Assembly (NCBI GenBank): GCA_031261505.1
Contig: JAISJN010000008.1
Span: 1 to 64,000 of the forward strand
DNA length: 64,000 bases
From: Clostridioides sp.
GTDB lineage: Bacteria > Bacillota > Clostridia > Peptostreptococcales > Peptostreptococcaceae
Direction of reading: 5' to 3'
Numbering within the stretch: the first letter of the stretch is position 1; each line of letters starts with the position of its first letter. Shown here in pieces: positions 11,240 through 33,412 of the stretch. Below the pieces are notes generated by a model, which saw only the letters and a list, made by a program, of their open reading frames with translations, searched no databases and was not told the DNA's origin. The position numbers and the translations under genes are program-made.

Positions 11240-11317
11240 GAGTTTAAGTTGATAATTCTATCTGAATATTTGTTTTATTGACTAATTAAGTAGTATATTA
11301 TAGAAAGAGGGATGATT

Positions 11318-12778
11318 ATGGAAAACGTAGAAGTAATGACTAAAGAACAGATAAACGAGTTTCTAGATGGAAAGTTTGATGAAATCTCAGGATTATCCGA
11401 TGCAATCTGGGATTGTGCCGAAACTGCATTTGAAGAGGAAAAATCAGCTGCTCTGATGATAGACATGCTTAAAAAACATGGTTTTGAAGTTGAAGAAAAT
11501 TTGGCTGACATTTGCACTTCGTTTTGCGCTACATATGGAAAAGTTTTCCCAACGATAGGAATCCTAGCAGAATACGACGCTCTTTTCAATTCTAGTCAAA
11601 AGGCAGGTATTGCCACAAGAGAGATTCTAGAAGAAGGCGGAAACGGTCACGGTTGTGGTCACAACCTTTATGCCGCTGGGTCGGTAGGTGCTGCAATAGC
11701 GTTAAAAGAATATCTACAACAAAATAATCTAGAAGGAACTGTAAAATTATTTGGCTGTCCAGGCGAAGAAGGTGGCTCAGGTAAGGCATTTATGGCTAGG
11801 GAGGGTGTATTCAACTCGGCTGACATTGCGTTAGGATGGCATCCAGCTGCTGCAAATGGAATTATGAGCGCAAGCAGTCTAGCAAATTACAATGTACTTT
11901 ATAAATTCAAGGGGATAGCTTCACATGCTGCAGCTGCTCCAGAACTTGGACGCTCTGCACTAGACGCAGTAGAACTTATGAATGTCGGAGTAAACTTCTT
12001 GAGAGAACACATTATCGACTCAGCTAGGATTCACTATGCTATTACCGATGCTGGAGGTAAATCTCCAAATGTTGTTCAGCCAACAGGTGAAGTTTCGTAT
12101 TTAATCAGGGCTCCAAAGAATCCACAAGTGGATGAAATATATAAACGAGTAAATAAAATAGCTGAGGGTGCAGCTCTTATGACAGAAACAGAATTGACAA
12201 TAGATTTCATAACAGCTTGCTCTAATGTTGTAAACAACTCAACGCTAGATAAAATCATGTACGAAAACTTAAAAAGTCTTCCAAAGATAGAATACACTCA
12301 AGAGGAAATGGACTTTGCACGCGATATAGATAAAACTAACCCAGATACCACAGCAGTAGGTACATTGCTAGGACTTTCTCCAATGGAAACAATCAAGATA
12401 GATAAAGAACTAGAGGGAAAAAATCTTTGCGATTTCGTACTCCCATACAATCCAGATGGACCTGAGGTGGTTATGGCAGGCTCTACTGACGTCGGCGATG
12501 TAAGCTGGAATATACCTACATCTCAACTAGTAACTACTTGCTTCTCAAAGAGCACACCTTTCCACACTTGGCAGGCAGTTGCTCAAAATAGAAGTTCAGC
12601 AGCGCATAAGGGAGCTCTACTAGCTGCTAAGGCAATTGCAGGATCTGCAATCGACGTTATAAACAATCCAAAGGTAATTGATGAAGCCAAGGCTGAACTC
12701 AAGACTAGATTAAATGGATACGAATATATTTCGGCTATACCTAAGGAAGTTAAACCTAGAAAGATGAGTCAATTATAA
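11318..12778 (+). CDS. AbgB-like M20 amidohydrolase (paralogue 1)
   Basis: A 486-residue zinc amidohydrolase resembling p-aminobenzoyl-glutamate hydrolase subunit B (about 480 residues). Motifs: GHGCGHN at 110-116, PGEEGG at 148-153, GWHP at 173-176, ITDAGGKSPNVVQP in the dimerisation domain and GSTDVGDVSW near the C-terminus. AAAGAGGG lies seven bases before ATG 11318; an upstream ATG at 11312 is too close. It is one of two paralogues here; the other is at 31961. No AbgA or AbgT partner is adjacent, so it may act alone on aminobenzoyl-glutamate, N-acyl amino acids or another amide. Confidence 0.88.
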   Translation: MENVEVMTKEQINEFLDGKFDEISGLSDAIWDCAETAFEEEKSAALMIDMLKKHGFEVEENLADICTSFCATYGKVFPTIGILAEYDALFNSSQKAGIATREILEEGGNGHGCGHNLYAAGSVGAAIALKEYLQQNNLEGTVKLFGCPGEEGGSGKAFMAREGVFNSADIALGWHPAAANGIMSASSLANYNVLYKFKGIASHAAAAPELGRSALDAVELMNVGVNFLREHIIDSARIHYAITDAGGKSPNVVQPTGEVSYLIRAPKNPQVDEIYKRVNKIAEGAALMTETELTIDFITACSNVVNNSTLDKIMYENLKSLPKIEYTQEEMDFARDIDKTNPDTTAVGTLLGLSPMETIKIDKELEGKNLCDFVLPYNPDGPEVVMAGSTDVGDVSWNIPTSQLVTTCFSKSTPFHTWQAVAQNRSSAAHKGALLAAKAIAGSAIDVINNPKVIDEAKAELKTRLNGYEYISAIPKEVKPRKMSQL

Positions 12779-20836: not shown

Positions 20837-20986
20837 ATGCCAAAAAAATTTAACTATAATGATGATTTCAAATTACAGATGGTTAATCTGATGAACTCAG
20901 GTAAAAAGATAACAGAACTTGTAGAAGAATATGGTGTTACAAGATCAACACTTAATAAATGGAAATCAGATTACCAATTAACTTAG
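20837..20986 (+). mobile_element. Truncated IS3-family orfA
   Basis: A 49-residue fragment with the IS3 OrfA helix-turn-helix: MPKKFNYNDDFKLQMV, then ELVEEYGVTRSTLNKWKSDY. ACGGAGG sits ten bases before the ATG and TATAAT lies near 20802. Full-length OrfA is about 90-100 residues and is followed by OrfB; both the rest of orfA and orfB are absent. Homology stops near 20970, where a truncated serine recombinase on the - strand begins. Confidence 0.7.
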
Positions 20987-21140
20987 TGTAATAACTTTTT
21001 TGTGCTTCTAGGCTATTTCGTTGCGAATCCTTTTCTGTAGATACTCGTGCATACGCACACACTCGCTTCTTACCACCATTTGACGATGAAATTATGCTAA
21101 AACTTACTGGAGCAATCTTTGTGATTTCCGGCTTATTTTT
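20952..21140 (-). pseudogene. Truncated large serine recombinase
   Basis: Only the first 60 or so residues of the catalytic domain remain. KRVCAYARVSTEKDSQ contains the nucleophilic serine in the RVST context. After SLEAQKSYYTKLI, where the family continues for another 400 or more residues, the frame runs into IS3-derived sequence and stops. It overlaps the upstream HTH gene by a few bases (start near 21140). The rest of the recombinase was lost, probably by the IS event. Confidence 0.75.
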
Positions 21141-21486
21141 CATACTGTTCATCCAATATACCAAGTATTGAACCATACCTTTTAACGAGTCTACTTGTGA
21201 TTGCCTTTCCCTCTATTTCAGTTAATAGTCCTTTTTGTTCTAAATAATCAAGCATTATCTTTGACAAGCGATAATCTAATTCAGATTGCTTGATTTCTTT
21301 AACCTGAACTGGAAGGTCATCTTTTGCTATCTCCTTATCCGTCTTTCCCATTACACCACTAAGATTATTATTTCTGCAAAATGACTTAATCGTATTAGGT
21401 GAAATACCGAGAATGTTGCTTATTTTTTTGTATCCATAACCTTCATTCCTTAACTTTACTATATCGTTTTTCTCTTTATCGTTCAT
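21133..21486 (-). CDS. HTH protein that accompanies serine recombinases
   Basis: A 117-residue protein. Residues 9-38 form a helix-turn-helix (NEGYGYKKISNILGISPNTI). The C-terminal part reads MLDYLEQKGLLTEIEGK, a short SHOCT-like helix pair. Similar small HTH proteins sit directly upstream of serine recombinases in clostridial integrative elements and are thought to regulate or assist them. AGGAGGGG is at ideal spacing. A dyad covering its candidate -35 (21530-21560) suggests autoregulation. Confidence 0.65.
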   Translation of the reverse strand: MNDKEKNDIVKLRNEGYGYKKISNILGISPNTIKSFCRNNNLSGVMGKTDKEIAKDDLPVQVKEIKQSELDYRLSKIMLDYLEQKGLLTEIEGKAITSRLVKRYGSILGILDEQYEK

Positions 21487-23063: not shown

Positions 23064-23702
23064 CTAGTCTTTATGATTTGAAACTATTGAATTTTTGATA
23101 ATCTGCTCTAAATACTGTGTTTCAGCGTATTCACCGATTGAATACATCACGAGAGAATCCCTGATATAACTTGAATGTTTTTTTAAGGTTTTTATATCAA
23201 ATTGAAGTCCTTTTTCTTTAGCATATTGAATTGAGAACGTCACTATTGTCCTAGTATTGCCTTATCTAAAGGGATGAATCTTCCAAATTTGAGCTAAAAA
23301 TTCAGAAAATACTTTAGCCTTAATTTCTAGATTGTAACTGTTAAAATTAACTTGTCTTAATTCTTTAATTGTCTTATTAAGTTCTTTTTTAATTGAGTGA
23401 TAGTTGGTATAATCAACGCTAAGTCCAGATAAGACTCTCTCATTCTTAATTATGTTAATTGTACGTAACTCTCCAGCCCAGTTGTAAACATCACCAAACA
23501 AGTGTTTGTGTATATATTTTATAAAATCTACATTCCAAGTTTTTTCAGGTTTTTGAGCTATTAGATCTATTAGTTTAGAACTTGATATATCATTCTCAGC
23601 CATATCCAATTTACACTTATCTCTTATACCTAATTTGTTTTTTAGAAGATTTGTATTTTCGTATATATAAGGATCTACTATATTAATCACCCCCAAAAAC
23701 AC
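23064..23702 (-). pseudogene. Fic-domain toxin with an in-frame stop in the catalytic motif
   Basis: The first part (23702-23262) reads as a Fic protein up to HPFR and stops with TAA. The same frame then resumes GNTRTIVTF and runs 65 residues to a TAG at 23064-23066. The expected motif is HPF-x-E-G-N-x-R, so TAA stands exactly where the Glu codon (GAA) belongs. Joined, the protein would be about 212 residues, the usual length. Fic enzymes transfer AMP from ATP to target proteins such as gyrase. As written, translation ends before the active-site loop is complete, so the toxin should be dead unless the stop is read through. The start codon is unclear: GGGGGTGAT lies before IVDPYIYENTN, with no ATG nearby. 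Confidence 0.85.
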
Positions 23703-24345: not shown

Positions 24346-24547
24346 TTATAATTTACGTTTAATAACGATCTCATTACCTTTGTTTAAATGGTGATACAAC
24401 TTTTTCAGTGTGGATTTTCGCAAACTGAATTGAGAAAGACTATCCTTAACCTCATCTGACAATTTGTCATTTATCAAACCATTTTAAGACGACGATTCGG
24501 TTACCGTATTCATCTACTAATTCGTTGATTTTACTTTTGATATTCAT
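24346..24547 (-). pseudogene. Frameshifted small gene at the end of the sigma-fusion locus
   Basis: An ATG at 24547, inside the last codons of the sigma-fusion ORF, opens a 26-residue frame (MNIKSKINELVDEYG...VVLKWF) that stops at 24467. In an overlapping frame the text continues as INDKLSDEVKDSLSQFSLRK...KRKL and stops at 24346, four-base coupled to the Cys-rich ORF. Joined, they make a basic protein of about 66 residues. The simplest reading is one small gene broken by a frameshift. Confidence 0.5.
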
Positions 24548-27500
24548 CTAAAAAATCCTCTAATTTCTCTCTGTTTATTCGTTTACGCATTTTGCTTAAA
24601 ACTTTAGCTTCAACTTGCCTTATTCTTTCTCTAGTTATATCAAAATATTTACCTACTTCCTCGAGTGTACGATTTTCACCATCTTCTAAGCCAAATCTCA
24701 GTTCTATAACCTTTTTTTCTTTATCATTCAAATGTGAGTACATTATATCTTCAAAAACACATTTAAGTTCTTTTCTCATTACGATGTTTTCTAGACTCTC
24801 AGATTCATTATCTTCTACGAAGTCGATCAACTGACTTCCTCCGTCATCGCCAATAGGTGTTTCTAGACTACATATGTTTCCTATGCGTCTAGAATATCTA
24901 ATGTCATTTATTTGTTTAACTGTGACATTCATATGCTTTGCTAGTTCTTCGTCGGTGGCTTCCCTTCCTAGTTCATAATACAATTTACTTTCTAAGTTAT
25001 TGTATTTATTAACGCTTTCCCTCATATGTACTGGTATTCTTATTGATGTTGAGTAATCTGCAATTCCACGAGTTATACTCTGTCTAATCCACCAGGTTGC
25101 ATACGTTGAAAATTTATAGCCCAATGAAACGTCAAATCTCTCAGCAGATCTCATCAATCCTTGCATACCACATTGATACATATCTTCTGAGTTAAAGGCA
25201 ACAGTTGCTGCATCCTCATAATTCCTAGCGATTTTTGCAACTAATCTTTCATTAGCTTTAACTAAATTTCTCAATGCTTCATTTTTTTTATATCCATCTG
25301 ATGTCTGAAACTGCTTTAAATACTTAATGTTAAACCTTTTATCTATAATATTTCCCATGTTATCTACTTTGCTGATGAATTCTTCATCAGTAAACGTAGT
25401 GCATAAATCTTCATCATCTAGAAATTCGAAATCATAAGTGTCATCCATTTCATATTGGCTACAAACTTCATCTGATTTATCAATATCGTAAGATTGGTAA
25501 TTTACATTAATTTCTGTCAAATTATAAATGGTTTTATATCCTTCTTTTTCTGGAGTTTCTTGTATAAATCTCTGTTTACAAGGTTGCATTTTTCCTTCAT
25601 AAAATAATTGTTTACCTTCACTTTCTAATATCTCTTTTTTTTCATTAATTTGACTGAAGTGCCTCTTAACTTCTTTAGAAGGCAATTTATCATATTTGAT
25701 ATTCACGTTCAAATCTTTTAATTCATCAAATACAACCAGCTTATCTACCTCATCAATTTGATATTTTTTAAATAATCTTTTTATTTCGGAAAATTTCACA
25801 TTACTGCCAAAACGAAAAGCTTTGTTAACATAGTCTAATATTTTTTCTATGTTATTCTTCTCGACTGTATTATCTGAATCGCTTGAATCATCTTCAATTA
25901 AAGTTACCTTTAAATTATTTAATACATTATTTACGGCTTTTTGTTCAGATTCATCCATCGGATATTTTTCAAACCACTCATTTACTTCCGAACTCTTTAA
26001 ATAAGCGCCATAATCAACATTCTCCTGTATGTAATCTAAAACTCTCAGTACGTTATTTTTTTCAATAACTTCAGTTTCTGCAATCGTATCTAGATTCTTG
26101 TCTGTATCTGTATATTTGTCTGCGTTTAGAACTAGATCATCTTCATCTGCAACTTCAATACATACAGTATCTGTATCTTCGAAATTAGTTTCATCACTTG
26201 TGATTTCTTGATATACTTCAGCCGTAGAGAGATTAATCTGCGAAGATTCAACAATATCATCATAAGCATCAGTATCCTCCTCATCATAAGTACATGTATT
26301 CGTTGTGTTAAACTCCCAGTCGCAATCTAAGTTTGGCATTATAATTTCAGATACAATATCTTGTTCAAATTCATTTGACCGATCATCTTCAATCATTTCT
26401 GTATCTGATTCGACCTCTTCATCAGATGAAATCTCTTCTAAATTAAATGGTGACATATTTCTCAAGTTATAATCTTGATTTTCATCAATTTCAGAGTATC
26501 CATTGATTTCGCTGTATTCGTTGATTTCGTTGTCTTTATCGATTTTACTCTCTTCTTCAATTTCACATTCTTCATCGCTCTCAATGTATTCGACATCTAT
26601 ATCTTCAGCTAAGTCAATAGCCTGGTTGATTGCTTTAATCAGTCTTTCCCTCTCTACTTCAGGATAATTAATCCAATCCATAGACCAAATTCGATAAATC
26701 TTCCAGCCCATTTCCTTTAAAATACTTTGCCTTAATCTATCTCTTTCTCTTGCTGTTTTTGCAGAATGATATGTTGCACCATCGCATTCAATTCCTAAGA
26801 TAAATCGTCCGTTTACTTTTGGATCTACTATTGCCATATCAATTCGATGTCCAGAACAACCAACGTTTCTTTTAACCTCATATCCATTTGAATTCAAAAA
26901 ATCGTAGATAGTTTCTTCTAGTTCTGATGCTGAAACTTCAATATCGCCTTCAGTTCTTTTGTGATCCGAAGATTTTGGTCCTTGTATCGCATATTCCATA
27001 TATGAGCGAAGCATTTTTACTCCATCCGAATTTGTTCTTTCAATTGCTATATCTGTTGGGTATATTGAGGATACCAACTTCACATTATACTTTGCTCTGG
27101 TTATAGCTACATTCAATCTTCTATAACCACCCTTTTGACTCAATGGACCAAAATTCATATGCATAATGCCCTTAGAATCTTTTGCGTAACCTATGCTGAA
27201 GATTATTGTATCTCGCTCATCACCTTGGACATTTTCTAGATTTTTGACAAAGAACTCGCCCGATTTTTCTTGGAAGAAGTACTCGTATTCAGGCATATTT
27301 TTGCGTAGGCGAATGATTTCATCCTCAATTGCATTTTGTTGAGATTCACTAAAGGTTATTACGCCCAATGTTCTTTGCGGAAATTTGACAATATGCTCAA
27401 ATACGAGATCAGCAACTTTTTTGGCTTCATTTTTATTACATTTTTTGCCACCCCTATCGTATACACCATCATCGACGTAAATAAACTCAACACCATTATT

Positions 27501-28031
27501 TTTGCTCCTTCTAATCGCTGACGGGAAGGTAATCAAATTATCGTCGTATATCTTTCTGTTAGAAAATGTTATCAAGCTTTCATCTCTACTTCTATAATGC
27601 CATTTTAAAATTCTTTCGGGTAGCACGGTGCTAGCCTCATCCAAAATTGATTCATATAAATCAACGTCATATTCTTCATCATCAAAATCATCCTCTGACG
27701 TACTAGAGACAAAGAAGTTTGTTGGTGGTAATTGTTTTGAATCCCCGGCTATTATTGTTTGCTTTCCTCTGATAATTGCGCCGACAGCATCTTCTGTATG
27801 TACCTGTGATGCTTCATCAAAAATAACCATATCAAACTCGTATATATCTGCATTTAAAAACAAGCTTACAGACAGAGGTGACATCATTAAACATGGTTTT
27901 AATTCTTTAATTAAATTAGGTATCGATTCGAACATTTTTCTAAGTGGCATTATTCTTCTTTTCTTCCTTAACTCTTTTTTTAATATATCAAATTCAGTCT
28001 TATCTGTACCGTATGAATGAATTCCTTGCAT
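24531..28031 (-). CDS. SF1 helicase C-terminal half fused to MTES_1575-type nuclease and sigma-70 factor
   Basis: A 1166-residue ORF. Residues 1-350 are the second half of a DUF4011-type SF1 helicase: DEAS at 72-75, GDSKQLPP at 96-103, VQGDERD at 268-274, VAITRAK at 308-314. Residues 368-475 form a Vsr-like PD-(D/E)XK nuclease (HRIDMA with Asp398, then GIECDGATYHS with Glu415 and Asp417). Residues 478-655 are an acidic, Asp/Glu-rich linker. Residues 660-715 and 727-780 are two tandem segments resembling sigma region 1.1. Residues 878-1153 are a sigma-70 factor: region 2 with YATWWIRQSITR and SIRIPVHM, region 3, and region 4 with RTLEEVGKYF and TRERIRQVEAK. No Shine-Dalgarno precedes the ATG at 28031. 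The coding text is open upstream to 28121 without a start codon, so this ORF is probably the 3' part of one gene with 28115-31456. Confidence 0.9.
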   Translation of the reverse strand: MQGIHSYGTDKTEFDILKKELRKKRRIMPLRKMFESIPNLIKELKPCLMMSPLSVSLFLNADIYEFDMVIFDEASQVHTEDAVGAIIRGKQTIIAGDSKQLPPTNFFVSSTSEDDFDDEEYDVDLYESILDEASTVLPERILKWHYRSRDESLITFSNRKIYDDNLITFPSAIRRSKNNGVEFIYVDDGVYDRGGKKCNKNEAKKVADLVFEHIVKFPQRTLGVITFSESQQNAIEDEIIRLRKNMPEYEYFFQEKSGEFFVKNLENVQGDERDTIIFSIGYAKDSKGIMHMNFGPLSQKGGYRRLNVAITRAKYNVKLVSSIYPTDIAIERTNSDGVKMLRSYMEYAIQGPKSSDHKRTEGDIEVSASELEETIYDFLNSNGYEVKRNVGCSGHRIDMAIVDPKVNGRFILGIECDGATYHSAKTARERDRLRQSILKEMGWKIYRIWSMDWINYPEVERERLIKAINQAIDLAEDIDVEYIESDEECEIEEESKIDKDNEINEYSEINGYSEIDENQDYNLRNMSPFNLEEISSDEEVESDTEMIEDDRSNEFEQDIVSEIIMPNLDCDWEFNTTNTCTYDEEDTDAYDDIVESSQINLSTAEVYQEITSDETNFEDTDTVCIEVADEDDLVLNADKYTDTDKNLDTIAETEVIEKNNVLRVLDYIQENVDYGAYLKSSEVNEWFEKYPMDESEQKAVNNVLNNLKVTLIEDDSSDSDNTVEKNNIEKILDYVNKAFRFGSNVKFSEIKRLFKKYQIDEVDKLVVFDELKDLNVNIKYDKLPSKEVKRHFSQINEKKEILESEGKQLFYEGKMQPCKQRFIQETPEKEGYKTIYNLTEINVNYQSYDIDKSDEVCSQYEMDDTYDFEFLDDEDLCTTFTDEEFISKVDNMGNIIDKRFNIKYLKQFQTSDGYKKNEALRNLVKANERLVAKIARNYEDAATVAFNSEDMYQCGMQGLMRSAERFDVSLGYKFSTYATWWIRQSITRGIADYSTSIRIPVHMRESVNKYNNLESKLYYELGREATDEELAKHMNVTVKQINDIRYSRRIGNICSLETPIGDDGGSQLIDFVEDNESESLENIVMRKELKCVFEDIMYSHLNDKEKKVIELRFGLEDGENRTLEEVGKYFDITRERIRQVEAKVLSKMRKRINREKLEDFLDEYQK

Positions 28032-28114
28032 ATCCTTGACTAAATTTTTCTTAATGCTCCTCTTAGCTATTGAAAATTGACCTAAATCTAATTTTTTAAA
28101 CTCGTCGATATCAC

Positions 28115-28132
28115 TTACTTGCTACTCCTCCT
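28115..28132 (-). other. Frameshift junction between the two helicase ORFs
   Basis: The upstream ORF ends ...SFRRSSK-TAA at 28115. The -1 frame is open from 28121 and continues VSDIDEFKKLDLGQFSIAKRS into the second ORF, which is exactly the text expected next in the family. Adding one base (for example AAG to AAAG) restores a single chain of about 2,300 residues. AGGAGG at 28132-28127 lies just upstream, but no start codon in the lower frame uses it and no slippery heptamer is present. Confidence 0.75.
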
Positions 28133-31100
28133 AAACGATTCCACAGCTTTGTGATTTGGAAGCATTTTATTCAACCACAATCTATAGAATCTCTTTAGAA
28201 AAGAATCGGTCATTAGCTCTGGTTTTATCTCTAGTAGATTAAGATTTTCAATATAAAAAGCTAGACCAACTTCCTCACATTTATTTCTTGAACTAGAATA
28301 ATCTAACCATTCTTGGAGTAGGAATAAATTATCCTTTAAACCTTCTAATTTTGCTATAACACTCTTAATTTCGACCTCATCCAAATCAGATTCCAAAATA
28401 AATAATTCTTTTATCCACGTCCATAATCTCTCTAAATCATTAATATATATATCTGTTTTTCTTGAGTATATTTCTCCTTCTTGTATAAATTCATCATTCT
28501 CATTGTTTTTTTGCATATACTCAGATGATAAAACAAATTTATTTCTAGACTCTATATACTCATTAGTCCAATTTAGTTTTCCAATTGTAGTTGACCAATC
28601 TGTATCTAATCCATTATATTCACTTAAAAACATTCTTTTAAGCTTAGTCTCATTGTCAGCAACATCTTCCTCTATCTTTTGTATTTCATTAAGCAAATTA
28701 AGGTAGTACTTTAGCTCGGAGTTGTTGAGAGTTTCCTTTTCACAACTTAGCAGACTATCATACAATTCATTGAGGTTGTCCAAATACTCTCTTAATTTTC
28801 GAACTTTCTTTAATATATTGTTTATATTTTCTTTCTCTACGACAATTTTACCCTTGAATGTATTTCTTATTGAGTTCTGTAAGTCAGATGAAACGAGTTC
28901 ATCCAAGTTATTGTAAATATCTACATAAACTTCTTTATCTATATATCTTGAAATCATGCTAGTTTTAAATTCATCAGGAAATTGTCCAATAAAGTCCTCT
29001 GTAAATGTATTTTTAAGTTCTCTAAACGAATTTAATTTTGAGTATACCAGCTGCCAGTCAGTATCAGCGCCATTGTAATATCCTCCCAAAAACATCTTCA
29101 CATTAGCTTCTAATCCTGATATTAAGTTGTTATGAGTCTCTATTTCTTTCAGTTTGTTCAAGGCTTCAATAATTTCTAAATTGTCTATTTTTTTCTGTTT
29201 ATCCAACTTCAGCGATAAGAATAACTTTTTATCATTCTTATAATCTTTCTTGAAATTCTTTAATATATTTGTGTATTCTAAACTAAACCTATTATAAAGT
29301 TCATTATAATCTATCAAAAGTACATCGCTAGTATATTCAGCTAACAGCAATCCCCTAATCTCATTTATTATCCTATAGCTATTTTCTACATCTTCAATAC
29401 TTTTAATATAGTCCTCAAATTTCTGACCTTCAAACCATAATTCAGTCGCTTCTATATCTGTCAATATTATTTCAATAATACTTTTGATTATTTTATACTG
29501 CTCTACCGTATTATCATTTCTCAACCCAATTTCGCATAGTATTTCATTGTTTTTAAGCACTCTATCTATTATATCCTGCATTTTGTCTAGTCTTGACATC
29601 AGTTCTTTTCTATCTGAAATAAGTTCGTCCAATTCTGCATATGAATTTGAGCGCATAATATTTTTTATTTTACTCCAATCATAAGACATCGATGAAACTA
29701 CATCATCTGCATTGAGTTTGTAAATTTCAGAAGTAAATTTAATATCCATCTCTGATTTCTTTTCATTATAGACATCTTTAATGCTCCTGCATTCTTCTGC
29801 TGTTTTAAATAGTTTACTCAAATCATCCTTAGATAACCATTTTTTAGGAGCTTTTGGTGATCTACTAATCAACTCAAATGATTGCTCCATGTTTTTTATG
29901 TAATTATATGTCATTGGTTCTTCAATATCGTATTTTTCCATTATGTCAAAAACATCTTTTTCTATATTTTTCAAACCGTTTATGACATTGGGTAAGTTGT
30001 CTTTTATATCTTGAATTTCAGTATATGATATATTAGTATTTTTCATATATCTCCATGGATTACTCCTATAATCTATAGACATATTAGCAACTATTGAAGA
30101 ATACTCTGTAATTAATGTGATGAAGTTATGAAGTTCTATATAAGAAACTTTATCAATATTATTAAACTTAAAATTCATCTCAGGTGAATCTATTAGTTTT
30201 GATAGCTTTCCACTTATCTCATAAATAGATTTATTAAGTGGTGCGCATACACTATGAAGTTCCCTTACATATTTATTTAAGCTCTCTCTTTTTTTCTGTA
30301 AAAGTTGCATATTATTAATCGCACCGTTTGGAAGTCTTACATTGCCGATATAAAGTGTTTTTTCTAACTCGTTTAGAATATCTTTCTTGTTAGTCTTATC
30401 GCTATGTAGAAGTAAGCAAAATTCAGATAAGTCTGCTTCACAGAGTTTTTTATGTACAACATCCAGAGCCGCTAATTTTTCAGAAACAAATAACACTTTC
30501 TTGCCATCTGCTAATGCTTCAGCTATAATGTTCGTTATTGTTTGACTTTTTCCAGTACCCGGTGGTCCTTGTAATACAAAACTAATTCCATTTTTTGCGT
30601 ATAGAAGTGCATCCTCTTGACTAGAATCAGCATCGACTACTTGAAAGCTTTCTATAGGATCTTTCACATCATACTCAAAATTCAAAAACTCTTCGGGAAT
30701 GTTCTCAATTTCACTTGTATCTCCTCCAAGTGCCTTTATTATAGGGTTAGCAGATATCCTTTCCCTATTTAATTCCAGATCTGAGTACATATTCATTTTT
30801 GAAAATGAGAATAAACTTAATACAGTTTCAAACTTCACCTTCCAATTTTTTTTCGCAACTTCTTTTCGCACCGAGTTTATATATTCTACTATATCGTCGC
30901 CTTGAGATTTGAATTCAGGTAATGATATTCCAAAATTATTCTGAATTTTATATTTCAATGTTGGGTTAACAATTATTTCATCCTCGTGTAAATTCAATTT
31001 ATATGGTGAAGAAAGCGACTCAGAAGTCAAATTTACGGGCACTAAAACAAGAGGCGAATTTATCAACTCTCTAGAATTCACATCGTCCGGCCACTCTAGA

Positions 31101-31456
31101 AAGCCAAATGCCATAAATAATGTATTTACACCCTGTTCCTCTATGGATGCTTTTGCCTTATATTTTAAATTTTTCAATGTTTTTTGTTGCTCAATGAGAG
31201 TTCTATCTGTTTCTATATCGCCCTTTCTTATTTTATATTCATCTGAGTATTCATCATCACTAGCAAATGAAAATTTCAATGTCCTTTCATGTACTACAAT
31301 GTCTTTATATAAACTTTCTAAACTCGGTGATATTAGTCTAATATTTGATCTCACTGTATCACGATAATTTATTAATCGGTTTCTTTTTCCTATATCAAGT
31401 AATTTTTTTTGCCAAGCTTCTATTTTTACGTTTAAGTTTGTCATCCTACTATTCAT
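28115..31456 (-). CDS. DUF4011 / SF1 helicase N-terminal half
   Basis: A 1113-residue ORF. Residues 15-35 carry the DUF4011 signature (KLLDIGKRNRLINYR). The Q-motif is VDADSSQEDAL (274-284), Walker A GPPGTGKS (297-304), and motif Ia FVSEKLAALDVV (323-334). Residues 380-1090 are a long, charged, mainly coiled-coil insert. Motifs II-VI are missing here and occur in the next ORF, so the protein is incomplete on its own. This architecture, DUF4011 helicase plus MTES_1575 nuclease, is found in single-gene antiphage systems and defence islands. AGGGGAG precedes the ATG at 31456. Probably one gene with 24531-28031. Confidence 0.88.
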   Translation of the reverse strand: MNSRMTNLNVKIEAWQKKLLDIGKRNRLINYRDTVRSNIRLISPSLESLYKDIVVHERTLKFSFASDDEYSDEYKIRKGDIETDRTLIEQQKTLKNLKYKAKASIEEQGVNTLFMAFGFLEWPDDVNSRELINSPLVLVPVNLTSESLSSPYKLNLHEDEIIVNPTLKYKIQNNFGISLPEFKSQGDDIVEYINSVRKEVAKKNWKVKFETVLSLFSFSKMNMYSDLELNRERISANPIIKALGGDTSEIENIPEEFLNFEYDVKDPIESFQVVDADSSQEDALLYAKNGISFVLQGPPGTGKSQTITNIIAEALADGKKVLFVSEKLAALDVVHKKLCEADLSEFCLLLHSDKTNKKDILNELEKTLYIGNVRLPNGAINNMQLLQKKRESLNKYVRELHSVCAPLNKSIYEISGKLSKLIDSPEMNFKFNNIDKVSYIELHNFITLITEYSSIVANMSIDYRSNPWRYMKNTNISYTEIQDIKDNLPNVINGLKNIEKDVFDIMEKYDIEEPMTYNYIKNMEQSFELISRSPKAPKKWLSKDDLSKLFKTAEECRSIKDVYNEKKSEMDIKFTSEIYKLNADDVVSSMSYDWSKIKNIMRSNSYAELDELISDRKELMSRLDKMQDIIDRVLKNNEILCEIGLRNDNTVEQYKIIKSIIEIILTDIEATELWFEGQKFEDYIKSIEDVENSYRIINEIRGLLLAEYTSDVLLIDYNELYNRFSLEYTNILKNFKKDYKNDKKLFLSLKLDKQKKIDNLEIIEALNKLKEIETHNNLISGLEANVKMFLGGYYNGADTDWQLVYSKLNSFRELKNTFTEDFIGQFPDEFKTSMISRYIDKEVYVDIYNNLDELVSSDLQNSIRNTFKGKIVVEKENINNILKKVRKLREYLDNLNELYDSLLSCEKETLNNSELKYYLNLLNEIQKIEEDVADNETKLKRMFLSEYNGLDTDWSTTIGKLNWTNEYIESRNKFVLSSEYMQKNNENDEFIQEGEIYSRKTDIYINDLERLWTWIKELFILESDLDEVEIKSVIAKLEGLKDNLFLLQEWLDYSSSRNKCEEVGLAFYIENLNLLEIKPELMTDSFLKRFYRLWLNKMLPNHKAVESFRRSSK

Positions 31457-31883: not shown

Positions 31884-31960
31884 TAATCTAAGTGGACGAA
31901 TTTACTACACATAAACCGATCCACTCAACAGAAATATTCATTTAAGAAAGAGGGATGATT

Positions 31961-33412
31961 ATGGAATCAATAACTAAAGAACAAATAAATAGCTTTCTAG
32001 ACGGAAAGCTTGATGAGATCTCAGGCTTGTCAGATGCAATCTGGGATTCTGCTGAAACTGCATTTGAAGAAGAAAAATCAGCAGCTCTGATAATCGATAT
32101 GCTTAAGAAACATGGGTTTGAAGTGGAGGAAAATTTGGCTGACATTTGCACTTCATTCTGCGCTACATATGGAAAAGGTTTCCCGACTATCGGAATCCTT
32201 GCAGAATACGATGCTCTTTTCAATTTGAGTCAGAAGTCAGGTGTGGCTAAAAAAGAACCCCTTGTAGAAGGTGGAAATGGTCACGGTTGTGGTCATAATT
32301 TATTTGCAGGTGCGTCTGTCGGCGCTGCAATAGCCGTAAAAGAATATCTCGAAAAAAACGATATCCAAGGTACTGTGAAATTATTCGGTTGTCCTGGTGA
32401 AGAGGGTGGATCGGGTAAAGCGTTTATGGCTAGAGAAGGTGCTTTTAACTCGGCCGACATCGCTTTTGGATGGCATCCAGCTTCTGCAAATGCAGTGATG
32501 AGCGTGAGTAGTTTGGCAAATTATCAAGTACTTTATAAATTCAAAGGAATATCTTCACATGCTGCGGCTGCTCCAGAACTTGGACGCTCTGCTCTCGATG
32601 CTGTAGAGTTAATGAATGTGGGTGTCAATTTCTTAAGAGAGCACGTTATAGATGAGGCTAGGATTCACTACGCAATCACCGATGCAGGTGGAAAATCTCC
32701 TAATGTCGTTCAACCAACAGGAGAAGTTCTCTATTTAATCAGGGCTCCAAAGAACCCACAGGTAGATGCTATATACAAACGTATAAACAAAATAGCTCAG
32801 GGTGCATCCCTTATGACAGAGACGGAACTCGAAATAGAGTTTATAAAGGCTTGCTCTAATGTAGTAAACAATACGGTACTCGATAAGGTTATGTATGAAA
32901 ACTTAAAAAATCTTCCAAAGGTTGAATACACTGAGGAAGAATTGGAATTTGCACATGAAATAGAAAAAACTACTCCAGATTCGACTGCAATAGGAACAAT
33001 GTTAGGTTTATCTCAAATGGAGACAATCAAAGTGGACCAACTGCTTAAAGATAAGGACCTTTGTGATTTTGTACTTCCTTTCAACCCAGAAGCTCCTAAT
33101 GTAGTCATGTCTGGATCAACTGATGTAGGCGATGTAAGCTGGAATATACCTACATCTCAGGTACTAACTACTTGTTTCTCAAAGAACACTCCGTTCCACA
33201 GCTGGCAGCTAGTTGCCCAGGACAGGAGTTCAGCATCTCATAAGGGTTTGCTTTTAGCTGCTAAAGCTATCGCAGGTTCTGCAATTGACGTCATCAACAA
33301 CCCTGGTCTAGTTGAAGAAGCTAAGGCTGAACTTAAGACTAGATTAGCTGGAGATGAATACGTTTCTGCTATACCAAAGGATGTTAAACCAAGAAAGATG
33401 AGTGAAATATAG
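31961..33412 (+). CDS. AbgB-like M20 amidohydrolase (paralogue 2)
   Basis: A 483-residue protein, identical to paralogue 1 at most positions, with the same motifs: GHGCGHN, PGEEGGSGKAFMAREG, GWHP, ITDAGGKSPNVVQP and GSTDVGDVSW. AAAGAGGG is seven bases before ATG 31961. The ORFs are equally long and both look functional, so two enzymes with slightly different substrates or expression are likely. Differences cluster in residues 90-105 and in the C-terminal 120 residues. It ends in its own terminator. Confidence 0.88.
   Translation: MESITKEQINSFLDGKLDEISGLSDAIWDSAETAFEEEKSAALIIDMLKKHGFEVEENLADICTSFCATYGKGFPTIGILAEYDALFNLSQKSGVAKKEPLVEGGNGHGCGHNLFAGASVGAAIAVKEYLEKNDIQGTVKLFGCPGEEGGSGKAFMAREGAFNSADIAFGWHPASANAVMSVSSLANYQVLYKFKGISSHAAAAPELGRSALDAVELMNVGVNFLREHVIDEARIHYAITDAGGKSPNVVQPTGEVLYLIRAPKNPQVDAIYKRINKIAQGASLMTETELEIEFIKACSNVVNNTVLDKVMYENLKNLPKVEYTEEELEFAHEIEKTTPDSTAIGTMLGLSQMETIKVDQLLKDKDLCDFVLPFNPEAPNVVMSGSTDVGDVSWNIPTSQVLTTCFSKNTPFHSWQLVAQDRSSASHKGLLLAAKAIAGSAIDVINNPGLVEEAKAELKTRLAGDEYVSAIPKDVKPRKMSEI

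What the first reader, a model, noticed from the sequence alone, without database searches (positions are those of the whole stretch)
28115..28132. One-base frameshift splits the fusion gene
The upstream ORF stops at 28115 and the expected next family text, VSDIDEFKKLDL, begins in the -1 frame at 28121. The two frames are jointly open for only seven bases, and no slippery heptamer is there. An AGGAGG just upstream resembles the stimulator of dnaX-type frameshifting, but the window is too tight. Loss of one A (AAAG to AAG) explains it simply. If real, the system is inactivated or split in this strain.
Basis: partly seen in the sequence, partly recalled or inferred. Interest (0 to 1): 0.6.

Follow-up and report, generated by a model that had tools for sequence, protein, structure and literature searches.

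The report
Frameshift-broken anti-phage helicase-nuclease-sigma gene
A very large bacterial anti-phage gene is cut in two by a one-base reading-frame slip and is probably dead in this strain, but its tail carries an RNA-polymerase sigma factor that no other member found here has.

Summary
On the minus strand ORF1 (31456-28115) ends at TAA 28117-28115. The family sequence resumes one frame back at GTA 28118; the frames are jointly open for 7 bases (28121-28115), with no slippery site and no stable downstream stem.

In 114 of 115 homologues the reading frame runs unbroken across this point; the 115th is broken elsewhere. This is a one-base lesion in a single-gene system, not a two-subunit design or programmed frameshifting. 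Two neighbours, a Fic gene and a serine recombinase, also carry lesions, and the gene is GC-poor. This favours real decay of a mobile island over sequencing error, but reads were not available.

The gene is a DUF4011 / SF1 helicase / MTES_1575 nuclease of the PDC-S37-ProA-Hhe kind. Its C-terminus is the more interesting part: a full sigma-70 (regions 2-4) behind two similar ~50-residue segments, where relatives have DUF3320 or nothing recognised. No homologue examined has this. A related stand-alone sigma lies next to a RecQ-like helicase on Lactiplantibacillus and Enterococcus plasmids, and MZA defence has a sigma component.

The lesion is ordinary; the sigma fusion is a new variant.

The parts
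28115..31456 (-). ORF1: N-terminal half, DUF4011 domain plus first part of SF1 helicase with Walker A; 1113 aa
   Evidence: Pfam DUF4011 7e-39, AAA_11; PADLOC PDC-S37 2.5e-174; NCBIfam ProA 5.6e-160
30545..30568 (-). Walker A GPPGTGKS, intact
28115..28121 (-). Junction: seven bases open in both frames; ORF1 stop TAA 28117-28115; the family frame continues from GTA 28118
28127..28132 (-). AGGAGG, resembles a Shine-Dalgarno sequence; no usable start codon of the ORF2 frame follows at normal spacing
24531..28118 (-). ORF2: C-terminal half; open from 28121, family text from 28118, first ATG 28031
27804..27818 (-). Helicase motif II DEASQ, intact; the rest of the SF1 helicase follows (AAA_12)
26628..26918 (-). 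MTES_1575 restriction-endonuclease domain; active-site text RIDMAIVDP...GIECDGATYHS intact
   Evidence: (3.2e-35)
25680..26066 (-). Two similar ~50-residue segments that resemble sigma region 1.1 by eye; the second aligns with the N-terminus of a plasmid sigma factor
   Evidence: no significant Pfam assignment
24582..25265 (-). Sigma-70 regions 2, 3 and 4 (RpoD-like) fused in frame at the C-terminus
   Evidence: 4.7e-14, 4.2e-15, 3.6e-16; RpoD_Cterm 1.2e-75, MzaA 8.3e-75
23265..23702 (-). Neighbouring Fic gene stopped inside its catalytic motif (HPFR*GNTRT): pseudogene
20955..21176 (-). Truncated serine recombinase, 74 aa: mobile-element remnant

Best explanation
This is a horizontally acquired single-gene anti-phage system of the DUF4011 helicase / MTES_1575 nuclease kind (PADLOC PDC-S37, NCBIfam ProA/Hhe), broken by a one-base frameshift between the two helicase halves. 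ORF1 makes DUF4011 and Walker A; ORF2 holds helicase motif II onwards, the nuclease and the sigma tail. With the frames split, no complete helicase is made and the system is expected to be inactive (inferred). In the unbroken ancestor I propose that the helicase translocated on invading DNA and drove the nuclease. The fused sigma domain would bind RNA polymerase or promoter DNA and so bring the enzyme to transcribed phage DNA, or couple its action to transcription. Shown here: the lesion, the domains, the intact motifs and the unsplit homologues. Inferred: inactivity, defence function and the role of the sigma domain.
For: Frame analysis. Domain and defence families. 114 of 115 homologues unbroken at the junction, and the motif continuous across it. 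No slippery site or stem. Neighbouring Fic stopped in its motif and recombinase truncated, whereas the metabolic genes in the window read as full-length ORFs (by inspection). GC 0.29-0.35 in the gene against 0.36-0.41 in most flanking kilobases. No helicase match in the four same-genus genomes searched. One copy of ORF1 in its own genome. Stand-alone sigma of similar sequence beside helicases on plasmids. MzaA is reported as a sigma factor in a defence system (PMC9523054).
Against: All catalytic motifs are intact, so the lesion is recent or is a base-calling error; no reads or second isolate could be examined. No close relative of the sigma-fused form exists in the sets searched, so its function before the break is untested. 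Defence function rests on family membership only.
Confidence: 0.75

Rival explanations
1. Sequencing or assembly error: the gene is intact in the organism and encodes one protein of about 2,300 residues.
For: All helicase and nuclease motifs intact; a single one-base event; no reads available.
Against: No long homopolymer at the site; the metabolic genes in the same 64 kb read as full-length ORFs by inspection; two neighbouring mobile genes carry different lesions, a nonsense codon and a truncation.
Confidence: 0.2
2. Programmed -1 frameshifting, stimulated by the AGGAGG, joins the two ORFs.
For: AGGAGG lies 5 nt upstream of the overlap; the shift is -1.
Against: No slippery heptamer; tRNA-Lys would have to re-pair from AAG to CAA; no stem downstream (z -0.59); no homologue uses this arrangement.
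Confidence: 0.03
3. A true two-subunit split helicase, with ORF2 started at ATG 28031 or by re-initiation.
For: Both ORFs are long and carry intact motifs.
Against: The ATG lies about 30 codons inside conserved family sequence and has only AAGG a few bases before it, too close; Walker A and motif II would lie on different chains; no homologue is split here.
Confidence: 0.02

Closest known systems
PDC-S37 (PADLOC) / ProA (NCBIfam NF058533) DUF4011 helicase-nuclease
   Same: Best family match for both halves, with the same order DUF4011, SF1 helicase, MTES_1575 nuclease
   Different: Split by frameshift; sigma-70 tail, with no DUF3320 detected; both halves below NCBIfam's whole-protein cut-off of 1500 bits
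Hhe (PADLOC, NCBIfam NF042953)
   Same: Same domain order, strong partial matches
   Different: Lower score than PDC-S37/ProA, below NCBIfam's 2000-bit cut-off, plus the sigma tail
MzaA, sigma component of the MZA defence system
   Same: The sigma part matches MzaA's C-terminus (8.3e-75); PMC9523054 calls MzaA a sigma factor of a defence system
   Different: Fused to a helicase-nuclease; below the MzaA cut-off (253 against 800 bits)
Stand-alone sigma next to a RecQ-like helicase on L. plantarum NZ_CP028262 and E. faecium NZ_CP096052 plasmids
   Same: About 42% identity; shared insertion in region 2.2 and missing DPVRMYLKEIG of region 1.2
   Different: Separate gene; the partner helicase is RecQ-like (PADLOC C3a193), without DUF4011

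Membership tests
PDC-S37 / ProA / Hhe DUF4011 defence proteins | DUF4011 domain at the N-terminus | tested here: met
   7.1e-39
PDC-S37 / ProA / Hhe DUF4011 defence proteins | SF1 helicase core and nuclease domain with intact motifs | tested here: met
PDC-S37 / ProA / Hhe DUF4011 defence proteins | One continuous polypeptide | tested here: not met
   two frames. 114 of 115 homologues unbroken at this point
PDC-S37 / ProA / Hhe DUF4011 defence proteins | NCBIfam whole-protein cut-off (ProA 1500, Hhe 2000 bits) | tested here: not met
   halves score 697 and 535 (ProA), 535 and 352 (Hhe), scanned apart
PDC-S37 / ProA / Hhe DUF4011 defence proteins | DUF3320 winged helix at the C-terminus, common but not universal | tested here: not met
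   no DUF3320, sigma-70 in its place; L032 and L034 have DUF3320, L042 none reported
PDC-S37 / ProA / Hhe DUF4011 defence proteins | Anti-phage activity | not testable with these tools
   needs an assay
Sigma-70 factors (RpoD-like) | Regions 2, 3 and 4 present with -10 and -35 binding motifs | tested here: met
Sigma-70 factors (RpoD-like) | Region 1.2 DPVRMYLKEIG of primary sigma factors | tested here: not met
Programmed -1 frameshift (dnaX type) | Slippery heptamer and downstream stem | tested here: not met

The most novel reading that the evidence does not exclude
The unbroken ancestor was a new kind of defence enzyme in which an RpoD-like sigma factor is fused to a DUF4011 helicase-nuclease, so that attack is aimed through RNA polymerase or promoters; it would belong to a wider set of defence modules that pair a sigma factor with a helicase.
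Probability: 0.4. Interest if true: 0.65.

Novelty: new variant of a known kind. Interest (0 to 1): 0.4.

Why it matters
The frameshift itself is ordinary gene decay. The fused sigma domain suggests a defence enzyme that may find its target through transcription, and it links three otherwise separate cases (MzaA, sigma plus RecQ-like helicase on plasmids, and this fusion).

Tried and rejected
Programmed frameshifting (no heptamer, no stem). Two-subunit design (no split homologue at this point). Phase variation: no repeat tract at the site by inspection. Paralogue rescue: only one ORF1 match in the genome. Close viral relatives: none; phage sigma hits are generic, and two long hits, H28 and H24, are ordinary dnaG-rpoD loci. 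Apparent DnaG-RpoD fusions were two ORFs with a stop between, as seen in L013. A fold of the repeats plus sigma without an alignment was poor (mean pLDDT 39.9) and not used. The linker alone gave no plasmid match. Paper searches found no account of the sigma fusion. My first ORF2 frame was wrong and was redone.

Full report
Observation. The minus strand reads ...TTT AGG AGG AGT AGC AAG TAA GTG ATA TCG.... ORF1 (31456-28115, 1113 aa) stops at TAA 28117-28115. The frame one base back is closed by TAG 28124-28122, then open from 28121, and from GTA 28118 it reads VSDIDEFKKLDLGQFSIAK, running 1195 codons to the stop at 24531. The overlap is seven bases. ORF2's first ATG is at 28031, about 30 codons further on.

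What the gene is. ORF1 carries DUF4011 and the Walker A half of an SF1 helicase. ORF2 carries the rest of the helicase, an MTES_1575 nuclease, an acidic linker, two similar segments of about 50 residues, and sigma-70 regions 2, 3 and 4. Both halves match the anti-phage families PDC-S37, ProA and Hhe best, each below NCBIfam's whole-protein cut-off when scanned apart.

Is it a lesion? I collected 115 loci encoding a counterpart of the start of ORF2, from 197 relatives, a scan of GTDB species genomes and 391 genomes of the class. In 114 the same frame is open upstream of the junction (median 879 codons). In all 30 where both halves were detectable by blastp they lie in one ORF. The exception, L054, is fragmentary and its frame opens about 60 codons downstream of the junction; L036 is also broken, but about 150 codons upstream. 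The motif KRFYRLWLD..LP...V..FRRR.Q|..I.EF..LD..Q..IA..RIK runs straight across; in L032 residues 1113 and 1115 bracket the junction. The split at this point is therefore private to this sequence, and the two-subunit reading is excluded as a family design.

Not recoding. There is no slippery heptamer. A -1 slip would move tRNA-Lys from AAG to CAA. The 78 nt downstream fold no better than shuffled sequence (z -0.59).

Real or error? Reads were not available, and the genome-wide indel rate was not measured. Two observations favour a real lesion. The neighbouring Fic gene is stopped inside its catalytic motif (HPFR*GNTRT), and a serine recombinase beyond it is truncated at 74 residues; these are lesions of different kinds in the same stretch. 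The metabolic genes elsewhere in the window read as full-length ORFs by inspection. The gene is GC-poor (0.29-0.35 against 0.36-0.41 in most flanking kilobases), and the four same-genus genomes searched have no helicase match. This fits a decaying mobile island. I put a real lesion at about 0.75 and an error at about 0.2.

The sigma tail. None of the 115 loci carries the sigma domain by blastp. None of the listed ORF2 matches from other genomes among 398 of the phylum extends past residue 507, and a search with linker plus sigma found only the window itself. No plasmid record covers 80% of ORF2. L032 and L034 carry DUF3320 at this end; L042 shows no DUF3320 and no sigma domain. The sigma part is 44-45% identical to housekeeping RpoD of four related genomes and about 42% to two plasmid sigma factors. 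With these two it shares an insertion in region 2.2 and the lack of DPVRMYLKEIG. Those two lie directly upstream of a RecQ-like helicase gene on L. plantarum and E. faecium plasmids, the latter beside a restriction-modification cluster. The second ~50-residue segment aligns with the N-terminus of the L. plantarum sigma factor, as if a whole sigma factor had been appended. MzaA, a sigma factor in the MZA system (PMC9523054), matches the same region. The own genome has a separate sigma-70 match in a 408-aa open frame at C21:198324, probably its RpoD.

Mechanism. In this strain: inactivation, inferred, because Walker A and motif II would be on separate chains and ORF2 lacks a good start. In the unbroken form: a helicase-nuclease on phage DNA, with the sigma tail as a probable link to RNA polymerase or promoters. 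This last step is a hypothesis without direct evidence.

Limits. One genome, no reads, no close sigma-tailed relative, a poor fold, and a capped set of genomes. The claim that the fusion is unique holds only for the sets searched.

Noticed in passing
23265-23702 (-): Fic/DOC gene stopped by TAA inside its HPFx(D/E)GNxRT motif; the frame reads on to about 23067.
   Followed up: partly
20955-21486 (-): Truncated serine recombinase with an upstream HTH protein: remnant of a mobile element.
   Followed up: partly
895, 23967, 35406, 57050, 60362: Dispersed ~60-nt palindrome-like repeat (CTTGAGA...ACCTATAGAGGTG...TCTCAAGTT); a strict pattern for it occurs 4 times in the genome, on C8, C11, C16 and C18, against 0 for the control. 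REP/MITE-like.
   Followed up: partly
11312-12778 and 31955-33412 (+): Two similar M20-peptidase-like (amidohydrolase) genes about 20.6 kb apart, 84% identical over the first 300 nt, with similar upstream regions.
   Followed up: no
L142:11998-16670 and L143:12025-16468: Stand-alone sigma factor followed by a RecQ-like helicase on plasmids; the L. plantarum sigma also carries a DpnI_C winged helix. A possible two-gene defence module.
   Followed up: partly
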